A stretch of DNA of 13,908 nt from Pseudolysobacter sp. (GTDB lineage Bacteria; Pseudomonadota; Gammaproteobacteria; Xanthomonadales; Rhodanobacteraceae). Made by a program: the position numbers and the translations under genes. The notes beneath the pieces are model-generated. The model ran no database searches, was not told where the DNA came from, and was given only the letters and a program-made list of their open reading frames with translations. This document shows positions 1-13,842 of the stretch, piece after piece. Location: the NCBI GenBank assembly GCA_025351985.1, contig JANXUW010000576.1, forward strand, positions 1 to 13,908, read 5' to 3'. Within the stretch, counting starts at the first letter, position 1; each line of letters starts with the position of its first letter.

Positions 1-1519
1 CGCCGTGTTTGAGGCCGGCCGCAATCATCTGTTCCGGCGCTGGCAGTGGCGTCCACGGTTTGCCGGCAGCGTCGCTGTACGCCGCGCCGAGCGCATTGAA
101 GATTTCCCAGTCGCCGCGTTCGTGTTCGGTTTGCGCACGCAGTGGCGTATTCAATCGCGTCACGCGGCGCACCGCAAAGCCGTTGAAAATGAGATCGTAG
201 TGATGCTGCGTCAATGAAGAAACCGGCGGCAGAATCAGATCCGCATGCCGTGTGGTTTCGTTGATGTACACATCGATCGAGAGCATGAAATCCAGCGATG
301 CCAGCGCGCCTTCCAGCGCGCGACCGTTCGGCGTCGACAACACCGGATTGCCGGCGCTCGTGATCAGCGCACGAACCTGGCCGTCGCCGGGTGTGAGGAT
401 TTCTTCGGCCAGCGCCGATACCGGCAATTCACCGGCGAATTCCGCCAGACCACGCACGCGGCTGCGCCATGCGCCGTGGTGACCGCGAGCGGTGCCCGGG
501 CCGGTGAGGCTGATGATGGCATCGTTCGGCACGATGCCGCCGGGCCGATCCAGATTGCCGGTATAGATCGCGATGAGCTGCAACAACCATTGCGCCAGCG
601 TGCCAAACATCTGCGTCGAAAGTCCCATGCGGCCGTACACCGCAGCGCGCGGCGCCGCGTACAACTCGGTGGCGATACGCTCGACGTGCACCGTGCTGAT
701 GCCGGTACGCGCGGCGATGAGTTCGTTGTCGAAATGCGCGATGCTCGCCAGCGCGATATCGAAATCCTTGAGCTTGCCGGCGTAATGATCGAGCCGCGCC
801 GGACCGCTGCGTTGCAATGCTTGCAACAACGCGATCAGGAACAACGCATCGCTACCCGGACGAATAAAAATATGCTCGCTCGCTACCTCGGCGGTTTCGC
901 TACGACGCGGATCGATCACCACGAGTTTGCCGCGCGCGCACAGCGCCTTGAGGCGTTTTGCAATGCCCGGCGCCGTCATCAGGCTGCCCATCGACGCCAT
1001 CGGATTGGCACCGAGCATCAGCATGTAATCGCAGTGATCGATGTCTGGAATCGGCAACAAAAACTGGTGCCCGTACATCGCCCACATCACCACTTGATGC
1101 GGCCACTGATCGACACTGGACGCGGAAAAAATATTGCGCGATTTCAGCGCGCGCAAAAATGCCGGCGCGTACGCGATGCTGCCGAAATGGTGCGCGTTCG
1201 GATTGCCGAGATACGCCGCCACCGAATTCGCGCCATGCGCGCGCTGGATCGCAGCGAGCTTTTCGCCGGCAAAGGCGAATGCCTCGTCCCACGAAATTTC
1301 CTCGAACTCCGCACCGCGCCGACGCAGCGGTTTGCGCACGCGATCGGGGTCGGCTTCGAGGTCGAGAATCGCGTTGCCTTTCGGGCAGATGTGGCCTTGG
1401 CTGAAAGGATCGGCCGCGTCGCCGCGAATCGCGACGAGTTGCTCGTCTTCGTACTGGAATTCGAGGCCACAAATCGCCTCACACAGCGGGCAGGCACGGA
1501 AACGGGATAGTCGCGACAT
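1..1519 (-). CDS. Molybdopterin-dependent oxidoreductase (DMSO reductase family), 3' end cut by window edge
   Basis: The minus strand reads open from an ATG at 1519 to the window edge: 506 codons, no stop. Residues 10-48 form the N-terminal 4Fe-4S motif (C10-x2-C13-x3-C17, then C45 in GHICPKG). This is the Mo-bisMGD fold of formate dehydrogenases, nitrate reductases and related enzymes. Further family blocks are LGANPM (169-173), VIDPRR (201-206), the GNLDRPGG loop (321-328) and SAGNP (388-392). The C-terminal dinucleotide-binding domain is missing because of the edge; relatives run to about 700-750 residues. There is no Tat signal, so it is probably cytoplasmic. The start at 1519 is chosen for a GGAG six bases upstream; an in-frame ATG at 1540 has no such site. 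The substrate cannot be told from this part. Around residues 131-137 (FSASSVD) a serine may occupy the Mo-ligand position, which is an inference. Long open frames on the plus strand here are shadows. Confidence 0.9.
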   Translation of the reverse strand, partial: MSRLSRFRACPLCEAICGLEFQYEDEQLVAIRGDAADPFSQGHICPKGNAILDLEADPDRVRKPLRRRGAEFEEISWDEAFAFAGEKLAAIQRAHGANSVAAYLGNPNAHHFGSIAYAPAFLRALKSRNIFSASSVDQWPHQVVMWAMYGHQFLLPIPDIDHCDYMLMLGANPMASMGSLMTAPGIAKRLKALCARGKLVVIDPRRSETAEVASEHIFIRPGSDALFLIALLQALQRSGPARLDHYAGKLKDFDIALASIAHFDNELIAARTGISTVHVERIATELYAAPRAAVYGRMGLSTQMFGTLAQWLLQLIAIYTGNLDRPGGIVPNDAIISLTGPGTARGHHGAWRSRVRGLAEFAGELPVSALAEEILTPGDGQVRALITSAGNPVLSTPNGRALEGALASLDFMLSIDVYINETTRHADLILPPVSSLTQHHYDLIFNGFAVRRVTRLNTPLRAQTEHERGDWEIFNALGAAYSDAAGKPWTPLPAPEQMIAAGLKHG

Positions 1520-1871
1520 CGATGGCTCCGGGAAGTACATGGCAGGGGCGATGTTGGAATATATACACCACCACGCAACCTGCGGGTCGCCATCTTCGCT
1601 GTTAGCCAAATGGCGCACGGAGACTTTACCCGATGTGGAGAAATGACGTCCAAGATTGTCTCGATGAATTGCGAAATCCTGCGTCGTTTCGGGCTACGAC
1701 TAGAAACATCTCGCACGAAACCTCATCGTGGCGAAAACATGCTTGAATAGACAGGATATTGACCGCACGTTTATTCGCGGCATCGCAAAATCAAATGGCA
1801 ACTCCACTTTTTTTATTCCACGTGCGCTGCCTCGGCAGGCATTTCGTTTTTCATCTCGCGGGAGCAATCGC
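1520..1871. other. Divergent intergenic region between the oxidoreductase and ene-reductase genes
   Basis: These 352 bases separate two outward-facing genes, so both promoters should lie here. Positions 1558-1566 are an AT-rich patch (TATATA-like) that could be a -10 element for the minus-strand gene, but no convincing -35 pairs with it. Plus-strand AT-rich stretches near 1755-1775 and 1800-1820 could serve the ene-reductase, also without a clear consensus pair. The ene-reductase frame stays open upstream to an ATG at 1728, but the 48 extra codons (basic, without family resemblance) have no good ribosome binding site and are treated as untranslated leader. No RNA gene or repeat was recognised. 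Confidence 0.45.
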
Positions 1872-2933
1872 TTGGCACTTTTCACTCCGTTCACTTTGCG
1901 TGGCCTCACGCTGAAAAATCGCATTGCCGTCTCGCCGATGTGCCAATATTCGGCGTTGGATGGTGTGCCGAATGACTGGCATATGGTGCATCTCGGCAGC
2001 CGTGCGGTAGGTGGTGCGGCGCTGGTCATGACCGAAGCCAGTGCTGTGCTTGCCGAGGGCCGCATCTCGCCAGGTGATGCAGGCATTTACAACGATGCGC
2101 AAGTTGCGGCGTGGCAACCGATCACACGGTTTATCCAGTCGCAGGGCGCAGTCGCGGCGATGCAGCTGGCGCACGCGGGCCGCAAGGCCAGCACCGATGT
2201 GCCGTGGCGCGGCGGGAAGCCGATCGCGGTTGAGCAGGGTGGCTGGTCGCCGATTCCGGCGCCGAGCGCGCTCGCGTTTTCGGACGAATATCAGGTGCCG
2301 CACGAAATGTCGCTCGAAAATATTCAGGTGTGCATTGCGGCGTTCCGTCGTGCCGCGCAACGCGCGTTGGAAGCCGGATTTTCGATCGTCGAGGTGCATG
2401 CCGCGCACGGTTATCTGCTGCATGAATTTCTCTCGCCGCTGAGCAATCGGCGCACCGATCAATACGGCGGAAGTTTCGATAACCGTACGCGTTTGCTGCG
2501 CGAAATCACCGCGGCGATCCGCGAAGTCTGGCCGGAAAATCTGCCGCTGTTCGTGCGCATTTCCGCGACCGACTGGGTCGATGGCGGCTGGGATATCGAG
2601 CAAAGTATCGCGCTCGCCAAACAGCTCAAGCCGCTCGGTGTGGATCTGATCGATGTCTCCAGCGGCGGCAATGTGCCGCATGTAAAAATTCCGGTCGGGC
2701 CGGGTTATCAGGTGCCGTTCGCCGCACGCATTCGACGCGAGGCGGATATCCCGACGATCGCCGTCGGCATGATCACGGAATCGTTGCAGGCCGAAGCGAT
2801 CATCGAGAACGGCGAAGCGGATATGGTCATGCTTGCACGCGAGTTGTTGCGCGATCCGTACTGGCCGCGGCGTGCTGCACACGATCTCGGTGTCACCTTG
2901 CCACCGCCTGAGCAGTATCAGCGCGCGTGGTGA
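1872..2933 (+). CDS. NADH:flavin oxidoreductase, Old Yellow Enzyme family (YqjM/NamA-like ene-reductase)
   Basis: A 353-residue FMN-dependent TIM-barrel enzyme that would reduce activated C=C bonds with NAD(P)H. The family is established; the physiological substrate is unknown. The YqjM-type signature is clear: PMCQYS at 22-27 places the flavin-tuning Cys24 and Tyr26. QLAHAGRK spans 98-105. The substrate-anchoring pair is His176/His179 in VHAAHGYLLHEF. SNRRTDQYGGSF (191-202) is the family loop. MLARELLRDP near 320 carries the phosphate-binding Arg323. I chose the TTG at 1872 because GGGAG lies seven bases upstream and the protein then begins LALFTPFTLRGL, as homologues do, at the normal family length. 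The upstream ATG at 1728 would add 48 unrelated residues. It appears monocistronic and ends at a terminator hairpin. Confidence 0.93.
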   Translation: MALFTPFTLRGLTLKNRIAVSPMCQYSALDGVPNDWHMVHLGSRAVGGAALVMTEASAVLAEGRISPGDAGIYNDAQVAAWQPITRFIQSQGAVAAMQLAHAGRKASTDVPWRGGKPIAVEQGGWSPIPAPSALAFSDEYQVPHEMSLENIQVCIAAFRRAAQRALEAGFSIVEVHAAHGYLLHEFLSPLSNRRTDQYGGSFDNRTRLLREITAAIREVWPENLPLFVRISATDWVDGGWDIEQSIALAKQLKPLGVDLIDVSSGGNVPHVKIPVGPGYQVPFAARIRREADIPTIAVGMITESLQAEAIIENGEADMVMLARELLRDPYWPRRAAHDLGVTLPPPEQYQRAW

Positions 2934-2967
2934 CTATCTCGTCACGATAGGTTTGATCGATGTTGCA

Positions 2968-3026
2968 ACACGCGGCGCTGCGGTTTTGAAATCACAGCGC
3001 CGTGTCTTTATTATCGCGGCGCTGCG
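2968..3026. terminator. Three-armed, probably bidirectional terminator between convergent genes
   Basis: A central arm (2995-3005, CAGCGCCGTGT) can pair with a left arm (2968-2980), giving an 11-bp stem with a 2-base bulge. On the plus strand this is followed by CTTTATTAT at 3006-3014, as in an intrinsic terminator for the ene-reductase. The 12-base sequence CGCGGCGCTGCG occurs both at 2971-2982 and at 3015-3026. A minus-strand transcript of the gene ending at 3049 can therefore pair its own copy with the same central arm (about 8 bp). The minus-strand tail is poor in T, so termination on that side is less certain. Confidence 0.6.
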
Positions 3027-3048
3027 TTGCCATCTTGCGAAGCGGGAA

Positions 3049-3513
3049 TCAGTCGAGCAATGGTCGATTCAATTCGGTGCGATACGTGGCTGAGTCGGCG
3101 TCCGATTCCGGGCCGGAAAGATAACGCTCCCACAAATCTGTCGCGGGCGAGAACCCGTTCGCCGTGATCCACGCGCCGAACTCGCCCCACGCCGCGCCGA
3201 GCCCTTCGTACGGCCCGGTGTAAATCGTTCGCGCCAGTTTCATCGCAGGCCACTGGCCCTGCCTGACTCGGCCGATAGCCGCGACTGGCGCCGACACTGG
3301 CACGCAAATCTCGAAATCGAATTCCTCTGCGGTGATGCGCAGATGATGAGTGAACCATGGGCCGGTCGGACCAATGCCCTGCGCTTTCACCGCTGCGATA
3401 ACTTCCCCGATGCCAGGCTCCATGATTTTCTGCATCTCCGAACGCGCCATCTTGAGCGGAATGATGGCGGTCAGTAACGCCGTGGTCTGAACAACGACGG
3501 GTGTATCGAGCAT
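3049..3513 (-). CDS. GyrI-like / AraC effector-binding domain protein
   Basis: A 154-residue stand-alone protein of the GyrI-like small-molecule-binding fold, as found at the C-terminus of AraC-type regulators and in SbmC/GyrI. The best evidence is the C-terminal half: TIYTGPYEGLGAAWGEF (residues about 95-111), then W-I-x-A-x-G, an LWERYLSGPES block and a terminal RTELNRPL. These are hallmark positions of the family. The N-terminal half contains the usual PTGPWFTHH and FDFEICVPV strands. There is no DNA-binding helix-turn-helix and no signal peptide, so it is a cytosolic binding protein whose ligand is unknown. The ATG at 3513 is preceded by CCGGAG eight bases upstream. It is divergent from pirin across about 150 bases and convergent with the ene-reductase. 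Confidence 0.85.
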   Translation of the reverse strand: MLDTPVVVQTTALLTAIIPLKMARSEMQKIMEPGIGEVIAAVKAQGIGPTGPWFTHHLRITAEEFDFEICVPVSAPVAAIGRVRQGQWPAMKLARTIYTGPYEGLGAAWGEFGAWITANGFSPATDLWERYLSGPESDADSATYRTELNRPLLD

Positions 3514-3660
3514 GATCGGATCTCCGGCTGGTTTTTGCTATGCGTCATGCAGGATGTTACGCCCGCCGTGTTGCCGTTGTGATGCAAATAATATCCAGAT
3601 CGTATGGCTCGGCGTCAGGTATTCTTTGCACTCCCCATCCACCGCTTGGCGAGCCACGAC

Positions 3661-4530
3661 ATGTCGAACAAGATCATCGCGATTCTCGATCCGCACAGCC
3701 GCGATATCGGTGACTTTTCGGTGTGGCGTTTGTTGCCCGCGCTGAATCATCGTATGGTCGGGCCGTTCGTTTTTTTCGATCACTTTGGGCCGGTGAATTT
3801 TGCGCCGGGGCAGGGCATGGCCGTGCGCCCGCATCCGCACATCGGGCTCGCCACGGTGACGTATCTCTACGACGGCGCGATCGTGCATCGCGATAGTCTC
3901 GGCAATAACCAGACGATCATGCCGGGCGATGTGAACTGGATGACGGCGGGGCGTGGCATCGTCCATTCCGAGCGTTCGTCCGAGCAGGATCGCAACAACG
4001 GCAGCTCACTGCATGGCATCCAGACGTGGGTGGCATTGCCGCTCGATCAGGCCGAATGCGATGCGGATTTCAATCATCATGCCGCGCAAACCTTGCCGCA
4101 ACTCGAACGTGACGGCGTGACATTGCGATTGATTGCGGGTTCTGCGTTTGGCCTGCAATCGCCGGTGGCGACTCGGTCGGCACTTTTTTATGTCGACGTG
4201 CAGATGCCGGCTTCGACGCAATTCTCGCTGCCGCCCGAGCATGAGCAACGCGCGATCTATGTCGTCGAAGGCAGCGTGATTATCGACGAGCAAATCGTGC
4301 AAAGCGGCCAGATGGCGATCTTCGCAAGCGGCGGCGATATCGACATCCTCGCGAGCGCAGATGCACGCCTGATGCTGTTCGGCGGCGCGCCACTCGGCGA
4401 CCGCATCATCTGGTGGAACTTCGTCGCAAGTTCACACGAGCGTATTGAGCAAGCCAAGGCTGCATGGAGCGCGCAGGCGATGGTGCAGGTATCGGACGAA
4501 CACGAGTTTATTCCGTTGCCGTTGCGCTGA
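3661..4530 (+). CDS. Pirin family protein (bicupin)
   Basis: A 289-residue double-cupin metalloprotein. Pirins bind one Fe through three His and one Glu, and some (YhhW type) act as quercetin dioxygenases. All four ligands are visible: His58 and His60 in RPHPHIG, and His102 and Glu104 in GIVHSER. The conserved PGDVNWMTAGRGI loop lies just before the last pair, at 88-100. The second cupin spans about 150-260 (IYVVEGSVIIDEQ, GQMAIFASGGD) and ends with the typical LFGGAPLGD and IIWWNFVASS block. The ATG at 3661 is preferred because the protein then begins as in relatives; an in-frame ATG at 3604 adds 19 unrelated residues. A weak GGCGAG lies upstream. Its cellular role here (redox sensing or dioxygenase) is not settled by sequence. 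Confidence 0.93.
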   Translation: MSNKIIAILDPHSRDIGDFSVWRLLPALNHRMVGPFVFFDHFGPVNFAPGQGMAVRPHPHIGLATVTYLYDGAIVHRDSLGNNQTIMPGDVNWMTAGRGIVHSERSSEQDRNNGSSLHGIQTWVALPLDQAECDADFNHHAAQTLPQLERDGVTLRLIAGSAFGLQSPVATRSALFYVDVQMPASTQFSLPPEHEQRAIYVVEGSVIIDEQIVQSGQMAIFASGGDIDILASADARLMLFGGAPLGDRIIWWNFVASSHERIEQAKAAWSAQAMVQVSDEHEFIPLPLR

Positions 4531-4570
4531 ACTGTCGACGGTCCGATAGCCAACTTTGCGATGAGTTCTG

Positions 4571-5215
4571 CTAGCGAACTGTCAAAGACTGCAGTTTCTC
4601 CATCAGATCGACAACGAGCGTGTGGGGATTGTCCAGCCGTTGCGAGTTGATGCGTTTGGCCCGCTGGCTCGCGTCCTCCAATCGAGCTTTGGTAGACGAA
4701 AAAATATCAATATTCCCCTTTCCGTAATTCGGCATATATTTTTTCAGCAGCGAAATTGCGCAGGCGCCTGGACTCTTCTTCCCTTTCACAGAGAAACTCT
4801 GTGATGTATCAGTAAAATGAAGGATTAGCCAATATTCAAAGCATGGATTGGATGTAAGAGCAATGAAAGGGCATTTCTTTTTTTCTATATTTATTTTTTT
4901 CAAAGAAAGACACCGATCTCGCGCCGCCGAATAGTCCTGGTGCTGGTCTCTATCAAATACACAGTAGACGAGATCGAAATCCTGATCACTATCGAAACAT
5001 TTCGATGCAAATTCCACCACGGTGGTTGGACTAGAGCCGCAGTCTTTTCCATGAATTTTTACATTTGCGGTAGGAAGGCGATATTCGTCAATTACTTCTT
5101 TGAAATAGTTTGGTTCTGTTTTCGATCCCTCACAAACGATAAGAATCCGCTCCTTCGGCACCAAATTCGCGCGACTGATACGCTTTTCATGAAAGGAGCG
5201 CGCGCGGCTATTCAT
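4571..5215 (-). CDS. rloB: RloB-like TOPRIM-fold protein (putative defence effector nuclease)
   Basis: A 214-residue protein. ILIVCEGSKTEPNYF (about 25-39) carries the TOPRIM-type glutamates E29 and E34. VFDRDQH supplies D88-x-D90. SNPCFEYWLILHF (122-134) and a late NPHTLV are further RloB-family blocks. TOPRIM proteins use the Glu and DxD set to bind Mg2+ for nucleic-acid cleavage, so a nuclease role is likely but unproven for RloB. The start at 5215 is chosen because its ATG overlaps the rloA stop (ATGAATAG, 8 bases shared), the classic arrangement for coupled translation; a start at 5248 would overlap by 41 bases. RloB partners RloA. RloAB genes were first named for their linkage to type I restriction loci, and similar ATPase-plus-TOPRIM pairs (PARIS, and by recollection AbiL) abort phage infection. 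No restriction genes are nearby. The G+C content is low. Confidence 0.88.
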   Translation of the reverse strand: MNSRARSFHEKRISRANLVPKERILIVCEGSKTEPNYFKEVIDEYRLPTANVKIHGKDCGSSPTTVVEFASKCFDSDQDFDLVYCVFDRDQHQDYSAARDRCLSLKKINIEKKKCPFIALTSNPCFEYWLILHFTDTSQSFSVKGKKSPGACAISLLKKYMPNYGKGNIDIFSSTKARLEDASQRAKRINSQRLDNPHTLVVDLMEKLQSLTVR

Positions 5216-6494
5216 CGATAAAACTCTGAGAAATGAAAGGTACGGCACCGTATCTTCCCTGAAGGTAGCCTCGCGAAAGTAATGTATCTTTTCGGGGGCT
5301 AAAATCTGATAGCGGATAAATTTCTGTTGCGTGAGAGGTTGTCTTTTCTACAAACCAGATTTGATCACGACGAAATATTTCTAATGACAATATTGAAGTC
5401 CCATGCGATGCGAATATTAGCTGTGCATTGTTAGTGTTAATTTTCGGATCGTGAAACATTTCTACTATATTCTTCAGTATGATCGGATGTAAGCTGTTAT
5501 TCAGCTCGTCTACAACGATTATTCTTCCCTTTCTGATGACGTCCAAAAACGGACCAGCGTAAGAGAATAGCTTGATTGTCCCCATGGATTCGTCCTCGTC
5601 AAGACCGAACCAGACTTCTTCGCCATTTACTTTTGTGTGTTTGACGTTTACCGACCGTCCGACGCTCTTGAGATACGCGCTCCTTTGTGCATCTGAAAGC
5701 ATTTTATTTTCTTCGAAAAGCTTCATCGCCCTAATAACTTCTTCTGGGGGTTTCTTGGGCTTCATTTCTAATTCTTCGATGCCTAGATCGGCGCCTTTCA
5801 AGAATCTCAGAATTCCATTTCTACTGGATGGGTCGTCTAATAGGTCGATCGAATAGCTAGAATTAACGTCACCACTACCAAGAATTAGCCTTAATTTCAC
5901 ATGGAACCAATCAAATACCGGTTTTAATTGTTCGGAATTTAGATTTACAGCGGTCGATAAGAAAAGCGAGTTTTCTCTAGTTGCAATACTCCACGATATC
6001 TTACTGCCTTTTAGTGAGCTCCCAAATTTCCATGTATATTTCTCACTCTGAGAGTCAAATTTGCGCTCGAACCATTTTTGCGCGCGTCCCTCCGGAAAAG
6101 CGTACAGCCACTCTTCGATGATCTGCGTTGACGTTGCGGAAAAGCCATACTGGTATTTCACAGAATCGTGAACAAAGGTGGCTTCAAATTGCGTGGGCTC
6201 GTCGACCGATTCGTCTAAACGAAAAGGGATGATGGGAAGATCGTCTCCTCGCAAACTTTCCTTTGCTGAAAGCGTCACAATATCCTTCATCGTTCGGAGT
6301 GCATGGAGGAAATTCGATTTTCCAGCTGCATTCGCTCCGTATATGACAGCGGTCCTCAACAGCCTTGTTGCCCCAGCAAAGCCAGAGGCAAATACGTTAG
6401 TGTCCTCATGGTGCTTATCCGGAGATGCGACCATTGAAAATCTCTGTTCGTCCCGCAGCGAGCGAAAATTCTTTACCGCAAATTCGACGAGCAT
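5208..6494 (-). CDS. rloA: RloA-like ABC/AAA-type ATPase (defence system sensor/motor)
   Basis: A 428-residue ATPase of the AAA_15/AAA_21 (OLD- and SMC-related) group. It opens with MLVEFAVKNFRSLRDEQ, the family N-terminus. Walker A is GANAAGKSN (53-61), a signature-like ESMGTIKL lies near 302-309, and Walker B is IIVVDELNNSLHP (325-337) with D329 and E330. The switch histidine is in FASHGTSIL (H364). All ATPase elements look intact. The central region (about 150-290) lacks a recognisable motif and is probably the regulatory or coiled insertion. In related systems the ATPase recognises a phage trigger and controls a TOPRIM effector; here that partner is the overlapping rloB. The start is uncertain: ATG 6494 fits the family, but ATG 6521 and TTG 6551 are in frame, and GGAG lies about 11 bases before the TTG. 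The gene is AT-rich relative to its neighbours. Confidence 0.9.
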   Translation of the reverse strand: MLVEFAVKNFRSLRDEQRFSMVASPDKHHEDTNVFASGFAGATRLLRTAVIYGANAAGKSNFLHALRTMKDIVTLSAKESLRGDDLPIIPFRLDESVDEPTQFEATFVHDSVKYQYGFSATSTQIIEEWLYAFPEGRAQKWFERKFDSQSEKYTWKFGSSLKGSKISWSIATRENSLFLSTAVNLNSEQLKPVFDWFHVKLRLILGSGDVNSSYSIDLLDDPSSRNGILRFLKGADLGIEELEMKPKKPPEEVIRAMKLFEENKMLSDAQRSAYLKSVGRSVNVKHTKVNGEEVWFGLDEDESMGTIKLFSYAGPFLDVIRKGRIIVVDELNNSLHPIILKNIVEMFHDPKINTNNAQLIFASHGTSILSLEIFRRDQIWFVEKTTSHATEIYPLSDFSPRKDTLLSRGYLQGRYGAVPFISQSFIDE

Positions 6495-6661
6495 AGTTGG
6501 TTCCAGATGAGTGTTTAACATCGATTCTTGCAGTTTTTCCGCAAAATACAAGCTGAATTGATCTCCGGTGACGTATTTTGATGGTTTGCATTGTTGTAAC
6601 TACGCAGGGACGTACTTTGCTGCTACTGATCTATCCCCCAAATACTTGTAACCGCGCCGTA

Positions 6662-6681
6662 ACACAGCATTCCTACTGTGT
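6662..6681. promoter_or_regulatory. Candidate operator dyad upstream of the phosphate transporter
   Basis: A perfect inverted repeat, ACACAG-N8-CTGTGT, lies 79 bases before the transporter start in the roughly 265-base gap between divergent rloA and the transporter gene. It has the size of a dimeric regulator site. It does not match the direct-repeat Pho box (CTGTCAT twice), so phosphate control through PhoB is not supported by it. The chance of a 6+6 dyad occurring at random is not negligible. Confidence 0.3.
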
Positions 6682-6759
6682 CCTATCGTGACGCTGGACA
6701 ACGCGCCAATTGCGACGGCGTGAGTCGATCAGCGTCGATCGGGCAAGGGGGAATGCGGG

Positions 6760-8250
6760 ATGGAATTTTTATTCGACGGGTCGCTGGCGACACCGGTGTT
6801 GATCTTGCTCGCGGCGGCGCTGCTGCTCGCGCTGGGTTTCGAGTTCGTCAACGGTTTCCACGATACCGCCAACGCGGTCGCCACGGTGATCTACACACAT
6901 ACGCTCAAGCCGACGCAGGCGGTTATCTGGTCGGGCATGTGGAATTTTCTCGGCGTGCTTACTTCCTCGGGGCTCGTCGCGTTCGGCATCATCGCGCTAC
7001 TGCCGGTAGAACTGATTATCAACGTCGGTTCGGGCGCGAGTTTTGCGATGGTGTTCGCGTTGCTGGTATCGGCGATCATCTGGAATCTCGGCACGTGGTA
7101 TCTCGGTTTGCCGGCGTCAAGTTCGCATACTTTGATCGGTTCGATCGTTGGTGTCGGTCTCATGAATTCGCTGATGAGCGCCGGCTCGAAATTCGGCGAA
7201 GGCGTGAACTGGGGCAAGGTGTCGGACGTCGGCATGTCGTTGCTGATCTCGCCGCTGATCGGTTTTGTCTGCGCCGCGTTGTTGTTGTGGCTGGCGAAAA
7301 AACTCATCAGCAATCCCGATTTGTATCGTGCGCCGGAAGGCAACAAACCGCCGCCGCTGTGGATTCGCGCCATCCTCATGCTGACGTGCACGGGCGTGAG
7401 TTTTGCGCACGGTTCCAACGACGGGCAGAAAGGCATGGGCCTGATCATGCTGATCCTGATCGGCATCGTTCCGGCGACGTATGCGTTGAACCCGGATACA
7501 TCACCCGAGCAGATCCACAAAATCGTCGCCTCCACGCAAAGCATCGCCAGCGTGCTGCAGCTGAGCGGCAAGGTGCAGCCGATGACGGCCGATGAGGCGA
7601 AGGATGCATTGTCGCAGTACCTGCGCGCCGGCAAGCTCGATGACAAAATCTATGCCGCGCTCGCGCAGAAAAATCAGGAAGTCGCCAACACCATCGCCAG
7701 CGCAAATGCGTTCAAGGATATTCCGGTGGAGTCACGCCGCACGCTGCGCAGCGATATTTATCTGCTCAGCGAATCGATCGGCAAACTGGTCAAGGCCGAT
7801 ACCAGCATCACGCCGGAAAATCGCACCACGCTCAACGCCTATAAAGATCAGATCAAGGGCGTGACCAATTTCATTCCGACCTGGGTCAAGGTGGCCGTTG
7901 CGCTGGCGCTCGGCCTCGGCACGATGATCGGTTGGAAACGCATCGTGGTCACGGTCGGCGAAAAAATCGGCAAGGCGCATCTCACCTATGCGCAAGGCGC
8001 ATCGGCCGAACTCGTGGCGATGGTCACGATCGGCGCGGCGGACGTGATGGGCTTGCCGGTGAGCACCACACATGTGCTTTCGTCAGGCATCGCCGGCACG
8101 ATGTTCGCGAACAAATCCGGGCTGCAGCGCGATACCGTGCGCAACCTGATTCTGGCGTGGGTGCTGACGTTGCCGGTGTGCGTATTCATGGGCGCGATGC
8201 TGTTCGCCGGCGGCTTGTTCATGGTGCTGCGCGTGTTCGGCATGCATTGA
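6760..8250 (+). CDS. Inorganic phosphate transporter, PiT family
   Basis: A 496-residue inner-membrane carrier, the size of E. coli PitA (about 499), for low-affinity import of metal-phosphate or phosphate with protons. Two inverted PiT signatures are present: NGFHDTANAVAT at 31-42 and FAHGSNDGQKGMG starting at 215, each with the essential Asp/Asn pattern. About ten hydrophobic segments lie before residue 240 and after 375. The hydrophilic stretch 245-375, rich in Ala, Lys and Gln, is the central cytoplasmic loop. A second pair of half-repeats reads PASSSHTLIG (about 119-128) and PVSTTHVLSSG near 431, as expected of the family. GGGGGA lies upstream at normal spacing. No PhoU-like (DUF47) partner gene is adjacent, unlike many PiT loci. 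The gene ends before a terminator hairpin. Confidence 0.95.
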   Translation: MEFLFDGSLATPVLILLAAALLLALGFEFVNGFHDTANAVATVIYTHTLKPTQAVIWSGMWNFLGVLTSSGLVAFGIIALLPVELIINVGSGASFAMVFALLVSAIIWNLGTWYLGLPASSSHTLIGSIVGVGLMNSLMSAGSKFGEGVNWGKVSDVGMSLLISPLIGFVCAALLLWLAKKLISNPDLYRAPEGNKPPPLWIRAILMLTCTGVSFAHGSNDGQKGMGLIMLILIGIVPATYALNPDTSPEQIHKIVASTQSIASVLQLSGKVQPMTADEAKDALSQYLRAGKLDDKIYAALAQKNQEVANTIASANAFKDIPVESRRTLRSDIYLLSESIGKLVKADTSITPENRTTLNAYKDQIKGVTNFIPTWVKVAVALALGLGTMIGWKRIVVTVGEKIGKAHLTYAQGASAELVAMVTIGAADVMGLPVSTTHVLSSGIAGTMFANKSGLQRDTVRNLILAWVLTLPVCVFMGAMLFAGGLFMVLRVFGMH

Positions 8251-8266
8251 TGCGGTTATCTCAATT

Positions 8267-8291
8267 CCGCGCAGCCTGCTGGGCTGCGCGG
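8267..8291. terminator. Hairpin between convergent genes
   Basis: A perfect 10-bp GC-rich stem, CCGCGCAGCC / GGCTGCGCGG, with a 5-base loop lies 16 bases after the transporter stop and 31 bases from the stop of the convergent small secreted-protein gene. The plus-strand tail is only TT, with no long T run, so it may work in both directions with factor help. Confidence 0.65.
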
Positions 8292-8322
8292 TTGGCAAAT
8301 CCTTTCGCGAATCAGCACGTGC

Positions 8323-8757
8323 TCAGTCGTTGTTGACCGTAATAATCTTTATTTTGTCGTCCGCCTCGTTCAACCACACCTCGCCATCGCCGAGCATGAT
8401 GCCCTGATCGTTCCAGAACACGCAGCGGTAATCGTTTGCGGAACGAAAGCGCGCGGCGAGGATGGCCGCGGTGACTTTCTGAGTAAACACCTCGTCGAAA
8501 TTCGCCAGTAATTGACTGCGCCGCAACTGCACGCTTTTGCCGCCCAGCGCCGTGCGCAGCGGAAACTGGACGAGGTCGGCCACCGCGGTATTGTCCTCAC
8601 GCGAGATCGCGCGTTGCAGCGATGTCAGAAACGACGCTGCCGCAGCTTCGCTGGAAAAAGGGAACGCCCCGGGTACGCTGCCGTCATCGCACGCGGCGCC
8701 GCAAAGGCTTGTTGCCAGCAAGATAGGAAGCGATAAAAAAAGTCGGCGCAGCATCAT
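8323..8757 (-). CDS. Small secreted protein, possibly NTF2-like fold
   Basis: A protein of about 144 residues. The N-terminus MMLRRLFLSLPILLATSLCGAA is a signal peptide (basic start, hydrophobic core, small residues at the likely cleavage site before CDDG). The cysteine after GAA is not in a good lipobox, since position -3 is Gly, so lipidation is doubtful. The mature part, with a helix like FLTSLQRAISREDNTAVADL followed by VQFPLR and ending VFWNDQGIMLGDGEVWL, resembles small SnoaL/NTF2-like periplasmic proteins. That is an inference from pattern only. The start at 8757 is supported by GGAA six bases upstream; ATGs at 8754, 8769 and 8772 are close alternatives. The function is unknown. It lies convergent with the transporter and divergent from the LolA-like gene. 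Confidence 0.75.
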   Translation of the reverse strand: MMLRRLFLSLPILLATSLCGAACDDGSVPGAFPFSSEAAAASFLTSLQRAISREDNTAVADLVQFPLRTALGGKSVQLRRSQLLANFDEVFTQKVTAAILAARFRSANDYRCVFWNDQGIMLGDGEVWLNEADDKIKIITVNND

Positions 8758-9054
8758 TTTGCGTTCCATCATTCGTTCGGCGGGATATTCGGACATTAAG
8801 CGCGGACGTCGAGACAGTCAACGCCGCTTTCGTCGCGGCGCGATATTTCCTGGTGCGGCTCGACGCGGGGTTTCGTATCGCACAACGCGACTGCGCGGCA
8901 TGACTTCTGTCGCATGGAGTTAGTCATTGCGGACTAGTAGTATTCGGTCGGACGATGGAGTTGGTAGATCTCCAGATTGGTTTTGCTCGAACTGCATCGT
9001 CTCGTTTTGACGCATACGGCCTTCGTCTGCGCCGGGCTTATGGGAGAGACAGCG
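8758..9054. other. Divergent intergenic region
   Basis: About 297 bases between the small secreted-protein gene and the LolA-like gene must hold promoters for both. No consensus -35/-10 pair, convincing dyad or RNA gene stands out on reading. Confidence 0.4.
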
Positions 9055-9801
9055 ATGCGTGGCACTGATTGGCTGATCACAGCGACGATGATTTTGAGCA
9101 TGGGCACGGCGCATGCGCTGACTGCCGATGAACTCGTGGCGAAAAATATCGAGGCGCGCGGTGGCGCCGAAAAACTGCATGCGATCCAGACGCTGAAACT
9201 CACCGGCAAGCTGGTCGTGAACGGCCAGTTCGAGCTGGCGCTGATGCAGATCAGCAAACGCCCGGCGATGTACCGCAACGAAGCATCGTTGCAGGGATTG
9301 ACCGCGGTGCAGGCTTACGACGGCAAACAGGCGTGGCAGATCCAGCCGTTCGGCGGGCGCAAGGATCCCGAAAAACTTTCTGCCGATGATGCGAAGGATC
9401 TGGCCGAATCCGCTGACATCGACGGCCCGCTGGTCGATTACAAGTCCAAGGGTTACACGCTCGATTATTTCGGCACCGAAGATGTCGATGGCACCGAGGC
9501 ATACAAGCTCAAACTCACGAAAAAAGACGGCGATATCGAAATCGTCTATCTCGATCCCGATCATTTTCTCGAAATCCGTTCGCTGACCCAGCGCATCGTG
9601 CATGGCGTCGAGCAGGTCAACGAAACCGACTTCGGCGAGTTCGAAAAAGTAAATGGCGTGTATCTGCCGTTTGCGATCGAATCCGGCCCGAAAGGTGTCG
9701 CCGACAAACCGCAGAAAATCAGTTTCGACAAGGCCGAAATCAACGTGTCGGCCGACGATGCGACCTTCCACTTCCCGGCCAGCGCCGGCGTAGCCAAGTG
9801 A
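9055..9801 (+). CDS. Periplasmic LolA/LolB-like protein (COG2834-type outer-membrane lipoprotein-sorting family)
   Basis: A 248-residue secreted protein. Residues 1-21 (MRGTDWLITATMILSMGTAHA) are a signal peptide cleaved after AHA. The mature start TADELVAKNIEARGGAEKLHAI is typical of the LolA-like family (COG2834), whose members have an unclosed beta-barrel that can bind lipids or lipoproteins. The body alternates strands (LTGKLVVNGQFELALMQIS, AYDGKQAWQIQPFGG, YTLDYFGTEDVDGTEAYKL, IEIVYLDPDHFLEIRS), ending with VYLPFAIES. Family annotation does not prove Lol function, since true LolA is usually encoded elsewhere. The start at 9055 has GGGAGAG at good spacing; an open frame from 8977 adds 26 unlikely residues. 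The next gene starts 13 bases after the stop, so the two are almost certainly co-transcribed. Confidence 0.85.
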   Translation: MRGTDWLITATMILSMGTAHALTADELVAKNIEARGGAEKLHAIQTLKLTGKLVVNGQFELALMQISKRPAMYRNEASLQGLTAVQAYDGKQAWQIQPFGGRKDPEKLSADDAKDLAESADIDGPLVDYKSKGYTLDYFGTEDVDGTEAYKLKLTKKDGDIEIVYLDPDHFLEIRSLTQRIVHGVEQVNETDFGEFEKVNGVYLPFAIESGPKGVADKPQKISFDKAEINVSADDATFHFPASAGVAK

Positions 9802-9814
9802 TCGGGAGATGACC

Positions 9815-12800
9815 ATGAAACGATTGATCCAACTCACGTTCGCTACGCTTGCCGCATCGATATTTGCCACGGTTACCGCAACTGCGGCAGCGCCGGTGCC
9901 GCTCAAATTCGATGCCGGAAGTATTTCCGGACTCAGCGCGCGCAACATCGGCTCGGCGACGATGAGCGGGCGTATCGCCGCGATCGATGCGGTTGATGAA
10001 AAGAATGGCAAGACCACGATTTATGTCGGCGCCGCGAGTGGCGGTGTGTGGAAATCCAGCGATGGCGGCACGACCTACAAGCCGGTTTTTGATCTGCAGA
10101 ATGTGCAGTCGATCGGTGCGATCACGATTGATCCGAGCGATCCGCGCACGATCTGGGTCGGCACCGGCGAGCCGTGGACACGCAACAGTGTTTCGGTTGG
10201 CGACGGTATCTACAAGTCCAGCGACGGTGGCGAAACCTGGACGCATCTCGGTCTCGAAAATTCCGAACGCATTGCCAAGATCATCGTCGATCCGAAAGAT
10301 CGCAACACGGTTTACGCGTGTGTTCCGGGCAAGCTCTGGAGCGACTCCGCCGAACGTGGTTTGTACAAAACCAGCGATGGCGGCAAAAACTGGTCACTGG
10401 TTTTGAAGGGCGCAAATCCATCGACCGGTTGCGCATCGATCAGCATGGATCCGCAAAATAGCGGTGTGATGTTTGCGTCTTTGTGGGATTTCCGCCGCAA
10501 GGGTTGGACGTTCCGTTCGGGCGGCGAAAACCCCACTTCGCCGAGCGGCAGCGGCCTGTTCCGCAGCAGTGACGGCGGTACGCATTGGACCGAAGTCAGC
10601 GACAAAACCAACAAGGGGTTTCCGGTAAAACCTTACGGCCGCATCGCGGTGACGGTCGCGCCATCGAACAATAAAATCGTCTATGCATTGGTCGAATCGC
10701 CGCGCAGCGCTTTGTTTCGTTCGGACGATGGTGGCCAGACCTGGGAAGAACGCGATCGCAGCCAGTTCATGGTATGGCGGCCGTTTTATTTCGCGACCTT
10801 GTTCGTCGATCCGAGCAATCCCGAGCACCTGTTCAAACCCGACCTCGGCCTGATCATGAGCGAGGATGGCGGCAAGAGTTTTTCCAACGCATCGGGCGGC
10901 ACGCATGGCGATCATCACGCGGTGTGGATCGATCCGAAAAATCCGCAACAGGTTATCAGTGGCGACGATGGCGGCATCTGGTATTCGCAGGACGCCGGCA
11001 GCAAATGGCGCAAGGGCGAAAATCTGCCGATCTCGCAGTTCTATCATGTCAGTGTCGATGATCGCGATCCGTACCAGGTTTACGGCGGTTTGCAGGACAA
11101 TAGCTCGTGGGTCGGGCAGTCCGAATATCCGGGCGGCGTGGGCAACGCGCAGTGGGAAAACATGTATGGCGGCGATGGTTTCTGGTCGTTCTCCGACCCG
11201 GCCGATCCGGATTATTTGTATACCGAAGCGCAAGGCGGCACGATCGGGCGGGTCAATCGTAAGACGCATGAGATCCGCGATATCCAGCCACGCGCCAATT
11301 TCCACGAGAAGCTGCGCTTCAACTGGAACACGCCGATTGCGTTGAGCCCGAACGAGAAAGGCACGATCTACATCGGCGCGCAGTTTCTGTTTCGCTCGCG
11401 CGATCACGGCCAGTCGTGGGATCGCATCTCACCGGATCTGACCAGCAACGATCCGCTCAAGCAGAAACAGGAAGAATCCGGCGGCGTGACCGTGGACAAT
11501 TCTGCCGCGGAAATGCATACCACGATCTATTCGATCAGCGAGTCGCCGAAGAATGGCCAGTTGATCTGGGTCGGCACCGATGACGGCAATCTGCAACTCA
11601 CACGCGATGGCGGCAAGAGCTGGAACAATATGGTCGGCAACATTCCGGGCCTGCCGAAAAATGCGTGGGTATCGTGGGTGGAGGCGAGCCGTTTCGATGA
11701 ATCCGTGGTGTATGCCGCGTTCGATCGCCACAGTTTCGGCGACATGCAGCCGTGGGTTTATCGCAGCAAGGATTACGGCAAAACGTGGACGCGTATCGTC
11801 GCCCCAGCGCAAGGCGTGCGCGGTTATGCGCATGTGATCCGCGAAGATACGCGCAAATCGGAGCTGCTGTTTCTCGGCACCGAATTCGGCTTGTGGGTGT
11901 CGATCGACGGCGGTACGCAATGGGCGCAATACAAGGGCGGCAATTTCCCGAATGTCGCGGTGCGCGATCTGGTGGTGCAGCCGCGCACGTCGGATCTGGT
12001 AATCGCAACGCACGGCCGTGGCATCTGGATCATCGATGACATCACGCCATTGCGCGCGCTCACGCCATCGGTGTTGAATCTGGAAGCGGGCTTTATCGAA
12101 GCGCGTCCGCAGCAGCAACGTCTGAACGCGCAAGGCGGCTGGCCCGGCGGCGATGCGGTGTTCACCGGCGACAATCCGCCGAACGCCGCGGTAATCACGT
12201 ATTACCAGAAATCGCGACACCTGTTCGGCAAGATCACGCTGGAAATTCTCGACAGCAAAGGCGTCGTCATCGACAGCATCGCCGCGAGCAAACGGCGTGG
12301 TTTGAATCGCGTGACGTGGGGCATGCGGGTGAAGCCGCCGCGTGTGCCGTCGGCCGCGCAAGTTGCGTTTAACGCCTCGCAAGGGCCGCGGGTTTTACCG
12401 GGCGATTACACCGTGCGATTGACCAAGGGCGAACAAGTTTATTCGGCGCCATTGAAGATCGGCATTGATGCGCGTGCGAAATATCCGCTGGCCGAACGGC
12501 AGCAGGAATTCGACGCCGCGATGCGCGTGCATGCCTTGTTCGGCACGATGACCGATCTGGTGTATCGCATCAACGCGGCGCGTAGCGGCGTGCAGGAACG
12601 CAGCGGCAAACTGCCCGAAAAAGATGCGTTGCGTGCCCAGCTCGCCGCCTATTGCAGCAAGCTCGACGAGGTGCGCAAGCAGATCGTTGCGACCAAGGAA
12701 GGCGGCGCGATCACCGGCGAAGAACGTATCCGCGAACACATGGATTCGCTGTACGGCGCGATCGTCAATTACGAGGGGCGTCCGAGCGACTACCAGCTCG

Positions 12801-13003
12801 CCGCGATCGATACGCAGCAGCGCGAGCTGGCCGATGTCGCCGAGCAGTTCAAGAAGCTCAATGGCGAGCAATTGACCAAGCTCAACACCGCGCTCTCCGC
12901 CAAACAATTGCCGCCGATCGCGATCCCCGACGCGGCGCCGGAAGAAGCCGGCAAGCAGTCCGCGAGCGGCGACAAAAAAGGCGGCTGGCTGGAACGCGAC
13001 TGA
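9815..13003 (+). CDS. Large secreted Asp-box (BNR/sortilin-like) beta-propeller protein
   Basis: A 1062-residue exported protein. Residues 1 to about 26 are a signal peptide (MKRLIQLTFATLAASIFA, small residues after). About 30-740 are built of WD40/YVTN/BNR-like repeats with eleven Asp-box-like turns (S/T-x-D-x-G-x-T/S-W type), with Asp near residues 83, 137, 188, 253, 305, 351, 393, 530, 598, 653 and 698. This suggests one large or two stacked propellers, as in sortilin-VPS10 and oligoxyloglucan hydrolases. The repeats close with ATHGRGIWIIDDITPL. The remaining C-terminus has a beta-rich module containing LPGDYTVRL and then a helical, charged tail. Such proteins are often called glycosyl hydrolases, but no catalytic pair can be assigned here. 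The start at 9815 is chosen over ATG 9809 because GGGAG (9804-9808) is correctly spaced only for the former. It is the second gene of an operon with the LolA-like protein. Confidence 0.9.
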   Translation: MKRLIQLTFATLAASIFATVTATAAAPVPLKFDAGSISGLSARNIGSATMSGRIAAIDAVDEKNGKTTIYVGAASGGVWKSSDGGTTYKPVFDLQNVQSIGAITIDPSDPRTIWVGTGEPWTRNSVSVGDGIYKSSDGGETWTHLGLENSERIAKIIVDPKDRNTVYACVPGKLWSDSAERGLYKTSDGGKNWSLVLKGANPSTGCASISMDPQNSGVMFASLWDFRRKGWTFRSGGENPTSPSGSGLFRSSDGGTHWTEVSDKTNKGFPVKPYGRIAVTVAPSNNKIVYALVESPRSALFRSDDGGQTWEERDRSQFMVWRPFYFATLFVDPSNPEHLFKPDLGLIMSEDGGKSFSNASGGTHGDHHAVWIDPKNPQQVISGDDGGIWYSQDAGSKWRKGENLPISQFYHVSVDDRDPYQVYGGLQDNSSWVGQSEYPGGVGNAQWENMYGGDGFWSFSDPADPDYLYTEAQGGTIGRVNRKTHEIRDIQPRANFHEKLRFNWNTPIALSPNEKGTIYIGAQFLFRSRDHGQSWDRISPDLTSNDPLKQKQEESGGVTVDNSAAEMHTTIYSISESPKNGQLIWVGTDDGNLQLTRDGGKSWNNMVGNIPGLPKNAWVSWVEASRFDESVVYAAFDRHSFGDMQPWVYRSKDYGKTWTRIVAPAQGVRGYAHVIREDTRKSELLFLGTEFGLWVSIDGGTQWAQYKGGNFPNVAVRDLVVQPRTSDLVIATHGRGIWIIDDITPLRALTPSVLNLEAGFIEARPQQQRLNAQGGWPGGDAVFTGDNPPNAAVITYYQKSRHLFGKITLEILDSKGVVIDSIAASKRRGLNRVTWGMRVKPPRVPSAAQVAFNASQGPRVLPGDYTVRLTKGEQVYSAPLKIGIDARAKYPLAERQQEFDAAMRVHALFGTMTDLVYRINAARSGVQERSGKLPEKDALRAQLAAYCSKLDEVRKQIVATKEGGAITGEERIREHMDSLYGAIVNYEGRPSDYQLAAIDTQQRELADVAEQFKKLNGEQLTKLNTALSAKQLPPIAIPDAAPEEAGKQSASGDKKGGWLERD

Positions 13004-13017
13004 TATCGATGCTCGGT

Positions 13018-13060
13018 GCTGGCTGATCCCGGCCGATCAAATCGGTCGGGATCAGCCAGC
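13018..13060. terminator. Long near-perfect hairpin between convergent genes
   Basis: A 14-bp perfect stem (GCTGGCTGATCCCG at 13018-13031 with 13047-13060) continues inward as six more pairs, one of them G-U, to a 3-base loop at 13038-13040. It starts 15 bases after the propeller-gene stop and ends 19 bases before the stop of the opposing cytochrome gene. No T-run follows on either strand, so it may act as a bidirectional terminator, a 3'-end stabiliser or both. Confidence 0.65.
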
Positions 13061-13078
13061 GATATTACGAGCGGGATT

Positions 13079-13477: not shown

Positions 13478-13594
13478 GGCGGTTCTCCGCTTCAATTCGA
13501 TACGCAGCATGATAACCGAGCGCTGGGCAATCCCGTTTTGACACGTGCGCGGCTGTGCCCGCCGCAACCGATATTTTTGCCAATGCGCACGCGG

Positions 13595-13623
13595 TTGACA
13601 TGTCGTATGGCGGATACTAAAAT
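13595..13623 (+). promoter_or_regulatory. Near-consensus sigma-70 promoter
   Basis: TTGACA at 13595-13600 (perfect -35) and TAAAAT at 13618-13623 (-10, one mismatch to TATAAT) are separated by exactly 17 bases. Transcription would start near 13630, leaving a leader of about 210 bases before the ATG at 13843. Confidence 0.7.
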
Positions 13624-13671
13624 CCGCGCGCCTTGGCTGCTACGAGGCCTGTGCTATCAACCGGAACCCGA

Positions 13672-13794: not shown

Positions 13795-13842
13795 GAAAGT
13801 TCCGACTCGGCTCCTGCGTTATCGGCGCAGTGGAGTCGAGTC
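13758..13842 (+). promoter_or_regulatory. Leader hairpins including a Shine-Dalgarno-sequestering stem
   Basis: Three stems follow each other. Stem A (13758-13763 with 13768-13773) has a CATC loop. Stem B (13780-13786 with 13794-13800) is a perfect ACTTTCC/GGAAAGT pairing. Stem C pairs 13804-13814 with 13832-13842 (11 pairs, one G-U) and continues as TGCG/CGCA (13815-13818 with 13826-13829) beyond a 2-base bulge. The GGAG at 13832-13835, seven bases before the ATG at 13843, lies entirely within stem C, so the ribosome binding site should be closed by default. I recognise no known riboswitch aptamer upstream. Confidence 0.6.

What the first reader, a model, noticed from the sequence alone, without database searches (positions are those of the whole stretch)
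4571..6494. Stand-alone rloA-rloB cassette: an ATPase plus TOPRIM defence candidate on an AT-rich island
Two overlapping minus-strand genes encode an intact ABC/AAA ATPase (GANAAGKSN, DELNNSLHP, ASHG) and a TOPRIM-like RloB with its E and DxD residues. Composition drops well below that of the neighbours. ATPase-plus-TOPRIM pairs are established anti-phage architectures (OLD, Gabija, PARIS), and RloAB was named for its link to type I restriction loci. Here there are no restriction genes, so the pair may work alone. The divergent 150-290 stretch of RloA could hold the phage-trigger sensor.
Basis: partly seen in the sequence, partly recalled or inferred. Interest (0 to 1): 0.7.

Follow-up and report, generated by a model that had tools for sequence, protein, structure and literature searches.

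The report
Acquired AbiL-type phage-defence gene pair
This is an intact copy of a widespread two-gene bacterial defence cassette (an ATPase switch plus a predicted nuclease, known as RloAB or AbiL) that was slotted between two ordinary genes of its host; it is a good example of a known kind, not a new kind of system.

Summary
Window 4571-6494 (-) holds two intact overlapping genes: RloA, an ABC-type ATPase (428 aa), and RloB (214 aa). HMMs name them AbiLi (8e-102) and AbiLii (3.5e-28). The cassette is a clean insertion: the only congener held has 86 bp where this genome has 2115 bp (44% GC against 59%), within otherwise largely collinear DNA. No repeat, recombinase or tRNA was seen at its ends. 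A defence role is well supported: relatives sit in the gpA-gpQ hotspot of P2-like phages, on 3.5-5.3 kb plasmids, beside restriction genes and inside Hma operons. Of 109 RloB loci, 105 have RloA and four lack upstream sequence; RloA sometimes lacks recognisable RloB. This fits an ATPase restraining a toxic effector. Weak points: TOPRIM membership of RloB rests on catalytic pattern, predicted topology and a profile match (46%, E 2e-4), and Foldseek found no solved relative. Trigger, substrate and activity of this copy are untested. Verdict: new member of a known kind (AbiL/RloAB); interest modest.

The parts
4531..6645 (.). inserted segment (2115 bp, 44% GC) absent from the congener G001, which has 86 bp here
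   Evidence: blastn of window against G001 loci; GC
5208..6494 (-). rloA / abiLi: ABC-type ATPase, 428 aa (in-frame TTG at 6551 is an unlikely earlier start)
   Evidence: AAA_21 4.5e-32; AbiLi 8.4e-102; M1 99% conserved; AlphaFold2 pLDDT 95.5; Foldseek Rad50/SMC/PtuA/OLD
4571..5215 (-). rloB / abiLii: predicted TOPRIM-like effector, 214 aa (in-frame GTG at 5248 is an alternative start)
   Evidence: PF13707 4.2e-35; AbiLii 3.5e-28; AlphaFold2 pLDDT 92.7
5208..5215 (-). 8-base overlap of the RloB start and RloA stop (ATGAATAG), suggests translational coupling
   Evidence: sequence; in 146 relatives with both ORFs, RloB start minus RloA end is 0-9 in 90 and negative in 45, measured with the longest possible RloB start
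6312..6338 (-). Walker A, GANAAGKSN, RloA 53-61
   Evidence: G53, N55, G58, K59 invariant in 123 of 123 sequences
5577..5591 (-). ABC signature-like ESMGT, RloA 302-306
   Evidence: S303, G305, T306 invariant in 123 of 123, E302 in 121
5484..5510 (-). Walker B and following loop, DELNNSLHP, RloA 329-337
   Evidence: D329, E330, H336 invariant in 123 of 123
5400..5411 (-). H-loop ASHG, RloA 362-365; H364 invariant; S363 in place of T is shared with one other sequence, G365 is unique to this copy
5238..5267 (-). C-terminal motif YLQGRYGAVP, RloA 410-419, family hallmark of unknown role
   Evidence: Y410, G413, P419 invariant in 123 of 123
5595..5894 (-). most variable internal stretch of RloA, residues 201-300 (only the 8-residue C-terminal tail is more variable), just before the ABC signature; candidate trigger or partner surface (inference)
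   Evidence: mean entropy 2.3-3.0 bits and up to 30% gaps; folded in the model, block pLDDT 87-97
5129..5131 (-). RloB E29, at the end of strand 1 (TOPRIM-type catalytic Glu)
   Evidence: E in 115 of 118; strand 24-28
4946..4954 (-). RloB D88-R-D90, at the end of the third strand (TOPRIM-type DxD)
   Evidence: D88 118 of 118, D90 112 of 118; strand 82-88
4817..4852 (-). RloB S122-H133 (SNPCFEYWLILH), family motif with near-invariant S122, F126, E127, W129 and invariant H133

Best explanation
A horizontally acquired, self-contained AbiL/RloAB anti-phage cassette. RloA is an ABC-type ATPase that forms the scaffold and sensor. RloB is a small TOPRIM-like nuclease held inactive by RloA. A phage product or an infection-induced change acts on ATP-loaded RloA, which frees or activates RloB. 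RloB then cuts a host nucleic acid (more likely RNA/tRNA, as AriB of PARIS does; DNA is possible), growth stops and the phage burst is aborted. Shown here: gene content, family membership, intact motifs, insertion at an empty site, tight linkage, and defence-type surroundings of relatives. Inferred: complex formation, trigger, substrate and abortive outcome.
For: AbiLi 8.4e-102 and AbiLii 3.5e-28; RloB 4.2e-35. Empty site in the one congener; patchy presence, 7 of 99 genomes with the window's own counted. RloA and RloB adjacent on one strand in 145 of 166 loci; distances correlated, r 0.89 for 112 pairs against a permutation maximum of 0.20. Of 109 RloB loci 105 have RloA and the other four have at most about 150 bases of upstream sequence; of the 105, RloA is full-length and adjacent in 100, full in two segments of one frame in 1, cut by the locus end in 3, broken in 1. 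Conversely 12 RloA loci with 1 kb or more downstream had no intact recognisable RloB. That one-way dependence is what a restrained toxic effector predicts. Relatives lie in the P2 gpA-gpQ region, which Rousset 2022 describes as a hotspot of antiviral systems (PMC9122126, passages); on small plasmids; next to genes matching REase_I, HmaB, DarG, PglZ models. Published: F. nucleatum AbiLii toxic in E. coli (PMC3985639, passages); an RloB-class (D44) toxin shown as neutralised by its AAA partner (PMC10440598, section 11 part 1).
Against: No function was measured. Foldseek found no solved structure for RloB at E <= 0.001, so TOPRIM is not proven by fold. Dy 2014 saw no toxicity of lactococcal AbiLii in E. 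coli and no antitoxicity of F. nucleatum AbiLi. Loci were not dereplicated, many RloB loci are the same contigs as RloA loci, and linked genes diverge together even without a physical complex. At least three RloA loci without RloB (L140, L169, L177) have another same-strand ORF right behind RloA that could be an unrecognised RloB or a different effector. G365 in the H-loop of this copy is unique in 123 sequences.
Confidence: 0.7

Rival explanations
1. It is a defence cassette but RloB attacks invading DNA directly, with RloA as a Rad50/OLD-like DNA-end engine, rather than causing abortive growth arrest. (Odds given here are not exclusive of one another.)
For: RloA model is nearest to Rad50, SMC, PtuA and OLD heads; the RloB profile aligns its E and DxD to OLD-like TOPRIM.
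Against: RloB-class proteins were toxic to E. coli when expressed alone in two published cases, and RloB was not found without RloA where upstream sequence exists, which points to a host target.
Confidence: 0.2
2. It is a toxin-antitoxin or addiction module that keeps the element in place, with no phage role of its own.
For: Neutralisation of a D44 toxin by its AAA partner; abundance on small plasmids; orphan asymmetry.
Against: Placement in the P2 gpA-gpQ region and in defence operons; lactococcal AbiL is described in the papers read as a phage abortive infection system (Deng 1999 itself was not read); F. nucleatum AbiLi did not neutralise its AbiLii.
Confidence: 0.1
3. It is a PARIS (AriA/AriB) system.
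For: RloA also matches a PADLOC AriA model at 1.2e-30, a model with nearly the same length and matched range as Pfam AAA_21.
Against: AbiLi beats AriA by 233 bits; RloB shows no DUF4435 match up to E 0.1; the RloB profile does not align to a small DUF4435 set (prob 0.3%, only 3 sequences).
Confidence: 0.04
4. It is an inert relic or a housekeeping gene pair.
For: One unusual H-loop residue, G365; promoter-like sites no more frequent than in shuffles beyond noise (6 against 3.6, sd 2.1).
Against: Both frames intact; of the RloA columns conserved at 80% or more the window departs at 7, of RloB at 2, and apart from S363 beside H364 none lies in the motifs listed here; absent from the congener.
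Confidence: 0.06

Closest known systems
AbiL (abiLi/abiLii), lactococcal abortive infection system, PADLOC AbiLi and AbiLii
   Same: Two-gene order, ATPase then RloB-type protein; both PADLOC models matched. In Lactococcus prophage proPhi7 the RloA relative (29.6% identity) is followed by a second gene, both annotated 'abortive phage resistance protein' (I did not HMM-check that second gene).
   Different: About 30% identity to that lactococcal protein; chromosomal here; activity untested.
RloA/RloB of type I restriction loci (R-linked ORFs; the meaning of the name is recalled, the association is stated in PMC10440598, passages)
   Same: Same Pfam families; L069 shows the pair directly before a type I REase gene.
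   Different: No restriction gene seen in this 13.9 kb contig.
PARIS (AriA/AriB)
   Same: ABC ATPase plus Toprim partner encoded as two genes; the mechanism used here as analogy (PMC12409363, passages).
   Different: Different families by HMM; in PARIS deletion of either gene is non-toxic (PMC9122126, passages), unlike the reported toxicity of RloB-class proteins.
OLD and Gabija GajA
   Same: ABC head with a TOPRIM-type active site (family knowledge; PMC10440598 and PMC12409363 passages).
   Different: One polypeptide there, two here; RloB is much smaller and no solved structure matches it.
Septu PtuA/PtuB and retron I-A PtuA
   Same: Closest solved defence ATPase by sequence profile (8ee4, 3.3e-7) and among the best by fold.
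   Different: Partner is an HNH nuclease there (PMC10440598, passages).

Membership tests
AbiL / RloAB | First gene encodes an AbiLi/RloA ATPase | tested here: met
   AbiLi 8.4e-102, matched residues 12-444 of the TTG-start ORF
AbiL / RloAB | Second gene encodes an RloB/AbiLii protein | tested here: met
   PF13707 122 bits against a cut-off of 31.5; AbiLii 3.5e-28
AbiL / RloAB | Adjacent, co-directional, ATPase first | tested here: met
   8-base overlap; 145 of 166 relatives adjacent on one strand
AbiL / RloAB | Confers phage resistance by abortive infection | not testable with these tools
   needs a phage challenge
ABC-type ATPase (OLD/Rad50/PtuA class) | Walker A, signature, Walker B and H-loop intact | tested here: met
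   invariant residues present; Foldseek 1.2e-10 to Rad50, 94 chains at E <= 0.001
TOPRIM nuclease (RloB) | Glu after strand 1 and DxD after strand 3 of an alternating a/b fold | tested here: met
   E29 after strand 24-28, D88/D90 at the end of strand 82-88; strongly conserved. The rule itself is recalled; active-site distances were not measured
TOPRIM nuclease (RloB) | Profile similarity to a TOPRIM family | tested here: inconclusive
   hhalign to 22 OLD-like TOPRIM domains: prob 45.7%, E 2.1e-4, E and DxD aligned; control against the RloA profile prob 0.2%, E 0.29
TOPRIM nuclease (RloB) | Structural match to a solved TOPRIM protein | tested here: not met
   no PDB chain at E <= 0.001, the 50 rows shown are mostly other a/b folds; in the viral library one match at E <= 0.001, an RloB-like model
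PARIS | AriA plus AriB (DUF4435) pair | tested here: not met
   RloB has no DUF4435 match up to E 0.1 and does not align to it (3 sequences); AriA model far weaker than AbiLi. That DUF4435 is AriB is recalled
Type I restriction-linked RloAB | hsd genes next to the pair | tested here: not met
   neighbours are a pirin-like and a phosphate-transporter-like gene (names recalled from sequence), collinear with a congener that lacks the pair
Toxin-antitoxin | RloB toxic alone and neutralised by RloA | not testable with these tools
   relatives only: toxic but not neutralised, neutralised; RloB not found without RloA where upstream sequence exists

The most novel reading that the evidence does not exclude
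RloAB is a portable guard module of the restriction world: born as a backup effector inside restriction-type operons (type I, Hma), it senses phage counter-defence proteins or the failure of restriction, and stand-alone copies such as this one have been freed to guard another host process, with RloB as a host-RNA nuclease of a divergent TOPRIM fold not yet solved.
Probability: 0.2. Interest if true: 0.5.

Novelty: new member of a known kind. Interest (0 to 1): 0.25.

Why it matters
AbiL/RloAB is common (48 of 299 genomes sampled from the phylum, the window's own among them, carry RloB above the cut-off) and is found on phages and small plasmids. In the open-access library searched I found no paper that reports its trigger, nuclease substrate or solved structure (searches; listings, with passages read in six papers). 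A copy with a sharply bounded insertion and an empty-site relative is a clean natural experiment, and the observation that RloB does not occur without RloA makes the restrained-toxin model directly testable. For this one locus, though, the result is a textbook acquired defence cassette.

Tried and rejected
PARIS membership: rejected on HMM scores and profile comparison (weak test). Core-locus reading: rejected by the empty site. Mobile-element ends: no tRNA, no convincing target-site duplication or terminal repeat, no recombinase ORF recognised by eye in the contig (not HMM-scanned); the mode of entry stays open. Polarity of the insertion could not be fixed by a further outgroup: the pirin gene was not found within 1.5 kb of the PiT gene in the eight loci of other genera (L011-L018), so gain rather than loss rests on composition and patchiness. 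Promoters and terminators: scan counts near shuffle expectation. Rfam: no match. Naming the host: no 16S in this assembly; the congener's 16S was 86-87% identical over its full length to the eight plasmid-collection rows listed (Methylomagnum, Halomonas, Acinetobacter); two further records in that tally lie at 90-99% identity but were not shown, so the class is a guess only. Single-sequence searches of the PDB gave nothing useful; the RloB profile search gave only helical-bundle and other chance-like matches. An own-genome defence inventory was not made beyond RloB, OLD-like TOPRIM and DUF4435.
Full report
What is there. Two minus-strand genes fill window 4571-6494. RloA starts at ATG 6494 (M1 is 99% conserved) and encodes 428 aa. 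RloB starts at ATG 5215, overlapping the RloA stop by 8 bases, and encodes 214 aa. RloA matches AAA_21 (4.5e-32) and RloB matches PF13707 RloB (4.2e-35, 122 bits against a cut-off of 31.5). PADLOC calls them AbiLi (8.4e-102) and AbiLii (3.5e-28); the next best model for RloA, AriA, is at 1.2e-30. NCBIfam gives only weak hits for RloA and none for RloB.

It is an insertion. The window is the whole of contig C316 in a 766-contig, 86% complete assembly. The genus has two genomes in the collection. The other one (G001, 2 contigs, 100% complete) aligns with window 1-4530, 6646-8760 and 8899-13594 in the same order at 87-89% DNA identity. Window 4531-6645 (2115 bp) is replaced there by 86 bp. Two other stretches did not align: 8761-8898 (138 bases here, 160 there) and the last 314 bases of the window. 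The insert has 44.1% GC against 59.2% for the rest; GC3 is 45-47% for the pair and 67-79% for nine other genes; the lowest 2115-bp flanking window is 56.9%. RloB above the cut-off occurs in 7 of 99 genomes of the family and order, the window's own included. In the 18-19 kb stretches fetched around the six others neither the pirin nor the PiT neighbour of this locus was found, and their RloA proteins are 41-49% identical. No tRNA, clear target-site duplication or terminal repeat was found.

Conservation. In 123 RloA sequences, Walker A (G53, N55, G58, K59), signature-like S303/G305/T306, Walker B D329/E330, E128, H336, Q358, H364 and C-terminal Y410, G413, P419 are invariant. In 118 RloB sequences Y37, D88 and H133 are invariant and E29, D90, E127, W129, Y164 nearly so. 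The window departs at 7 RloA and 2 RloB columns of 80% or higher conservation; only S363, beside the H-loop histidine, lies in a motif. G365 after that histidine is unique to this copy (the column is D, E or N elsewhere). The most variable internal stretch of RloA is residues 201-300, with entropies of 2.3-3.0 bits; only the 8-residue C-terminal tail is higher (all).

Structure. AlphaFold2 models are confident: RloB pLDDT 92.7, pTM 0.87; RloA pLDDT 95.5, pTM 0.92. RloA matches ABC heads: Rad50 1.2e-10, SMC, PtuA, OLD. The profile search of PDB sequences agrees: PtuA 3.3e-7 is best, with AriA near 6e-4. RloB has strand-helix alternation with E29 after strand 24-28 and D88/D90 at the end of strand 82-88, the TOPRIM layout as I recall it. 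Its profile aligns with 22 OLD-like TOPRIM domains at 45.7% probability, E 2.1e-4, with E and DxD in register, against 0.2% and 0.29 for the unrelated RloA profile. But Foldseek finds no PDB chain at E <= 0.001; in the viral library one model passes that limit, an 'RloB-like protein'. An alignment to three DUF4435 (AriB-family) sequences failed. The assignment to TOPRIM is therefore likely, not proven.

Partnership. Of 166 loci with an RloA ORF (L020-L185, not dereplicated; L026 comes from a below-cut-off RloB match), 145 have RloB adjacent on the same strand within 300 bases and one (L043) has it 1.76 kb away. Of the 20 without, 8 have under 250 bases of sequence after RloA and 12 have at least 1 kb. 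Of these 12, two keep only RloB fragments (L058, L072), one has a divergent match (L026) and nine show nothing recognisable within 2.5 kb; three of the nine (L140, L169, L177) have another same-strand ORF of 233-336 aa right behind RloA, so an unrecognised or different partner is possible there. In the reverse direction 109 RloB loci were examined: the best 80 of 102 viral ones (many on the same contigs as the RloA set) and the 29 phylum-genome loci L309-L337. RloA was found in 105; the other four have at most about 150 bases upstream of RloB, and for one of them (L272) the neighbouring piece of the same contig, L119, ends with RloA. Of the 105, RloA is full-length and adjacent in 100, split into two segments of one frame in one (L317), cut by the locus end in 3, and broken in one (L337), where RloB is partial too. 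Pairwise distances of the partners correlate at r 0.89 over 112 pairs, permutation maximum 0.20; linkage alone would also give a correlation. The one-way dependence, RloB not found alone and RloA sometimes alone, is what a toxic effector restrained by its ATPase predicts.

Surroundings of relatives. Nearest genes in genome loci (139 proteins; the 25 commonest of 192 PADLOC families shown, and one protein can match several models) include 4 matching HmaB/DUF1156 methylases, 3 type I restriction enzymes, 3 mad3, 2 DarG, 2 each BrxH and DrmD (models that HmaA helicases also match), and single PglZ, SIR2 and PD-Lambda-2 genes. Ordinary metabolic genes are among the neighbours too. Nearest genes in viral loci (121) include 15 phage integrases, 7 portals and 3 GPA replication proteins. 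In the Klebsiella Peduoviridae phage ST13-OXA48phi12.1 the pair lies between replication endonuclease and portal, with small genes on the way; L110, L117 and L120 have the gpA-type and portal genes on the two sides. Rousset 2022 (PMC9122126, passages) names that gpA-gpQ region a hotspot of antiviral systems and the home of P2 old and tin. In Lactococcus prophage proPhi7 the RloA relative follows the lysin and is annotated 'abortive phage resistance protein'. Among plasmids 62 records match RloB; of the 60 listed, 42 are at most 5.3 kb (many are near-identical). Three opened examples carry the pair plus replication or mobilisation genes and, in one, a hypothetical gene (the PLSDB gene table is incomplete). 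pCAQ10.10 lists only RloB and Rop, although RloA matches its sister record. An 11.3 kb Psychrobacter plasmid carries the pair with other genes, a DNA methyltransferase and a BrnT toxin among them. Stand-alone RloAB is thus common.

Literature. Dy 2014 (PMC3985639, passages): F. nucleatum AbiLii inhibited E. coli growth, its AbiLi did not neutralise it, and the lactococcal AbiL proteins were not toxic. Ernits 2023 (PMC10440598, passages and section 11 part 1): RloB homologues (D44) are linked to AAA ATPase antitoxins; the C. algidicarnis D44:AAA pair is shown as validated by neutralisation; HHpred links RloB to OLD TOPRIM; their AlphaFold models gave no convincing AAA-toxin interface. PMC12409363 (passages) lists AbiL among ABC-plus-Toprim systems and describes AriA holding AriB, which cleaves tRNA after triggering. 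PMC12839542 (passages) describes TOPRIM-linked OLD-ABC dyads as backup effectors inside BREX and BREX-related (Hma) loci. PMC8565338 (passages) describes Hma. Deng 1999 was not read.

Mechanism. Best account: ATP-loaded RloA restrains RloB, an infection cue acts on RloA, and RloB is released or activated and cuts host nucleic acid, most likely RNA, aborting infection. The family, linkage and context steps are shown; the complex, cue, substrate and outcome are inferred by analogy. Verdict: real, acquired, very probably a working defence cassette, and a new member of the known AbiL/RloAB kind.

Noticed in passing
L031:3745-17260, L051:2034-13554, L023:3-12672, L097:3381-12398: RloAB sits between the HmaA helicase and HmaB methylase genes (HMM-checked for L031 A/B/C, L023 A/B, L051 A/C; the rest by clustering); RloB overlaps the start of the HmaB-type gene in L031, L023 and L097. 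In L023 two opposite-strand genes also lie between. PMC12839542 (passages) already describes such dyads as backup effectors.
   Followed up: partly
L028, L047, L053, L058, L072, L106, L140, L141, L169, L173, L177: RloA genes without intact recognisable RloB; L058 keeps only RloB profile positions 175-216 and L072 only 1-55; L140, L169 and L177 have another ORF right behind RloA. Whether solo RloA still acts, or has another partner, is unknown.
   Followed up: partly
window 5238-5267 (RloA 410-419): The C-terminal YLxGRYGAxP motif of RloA is invariant at Y410, G413 and P419 in 123 sequences and has no role known to me; it could be the RloB dock.
   Followed up: no
window 8761-8898 and 13595-13908: Two further stretches that did not align to the congener: 138 bases here against 160 there, and the last 314 bases of the contig.
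   Followed up: no
G000:C438:1987-2112 (L219): The same assembly holds a partial OLD-like TOPRIM match (E 6.8e-6) on another contig, a possible second ATPase-TOPRIM gene.
   Followed up: no
L187 and UViGs L110, L117, L120: RloAB occupies the gpA-gpQ cargo region of P2-like phages, the region of old and tin in P2 (PMC9122126, passages).
   Followed up: yes
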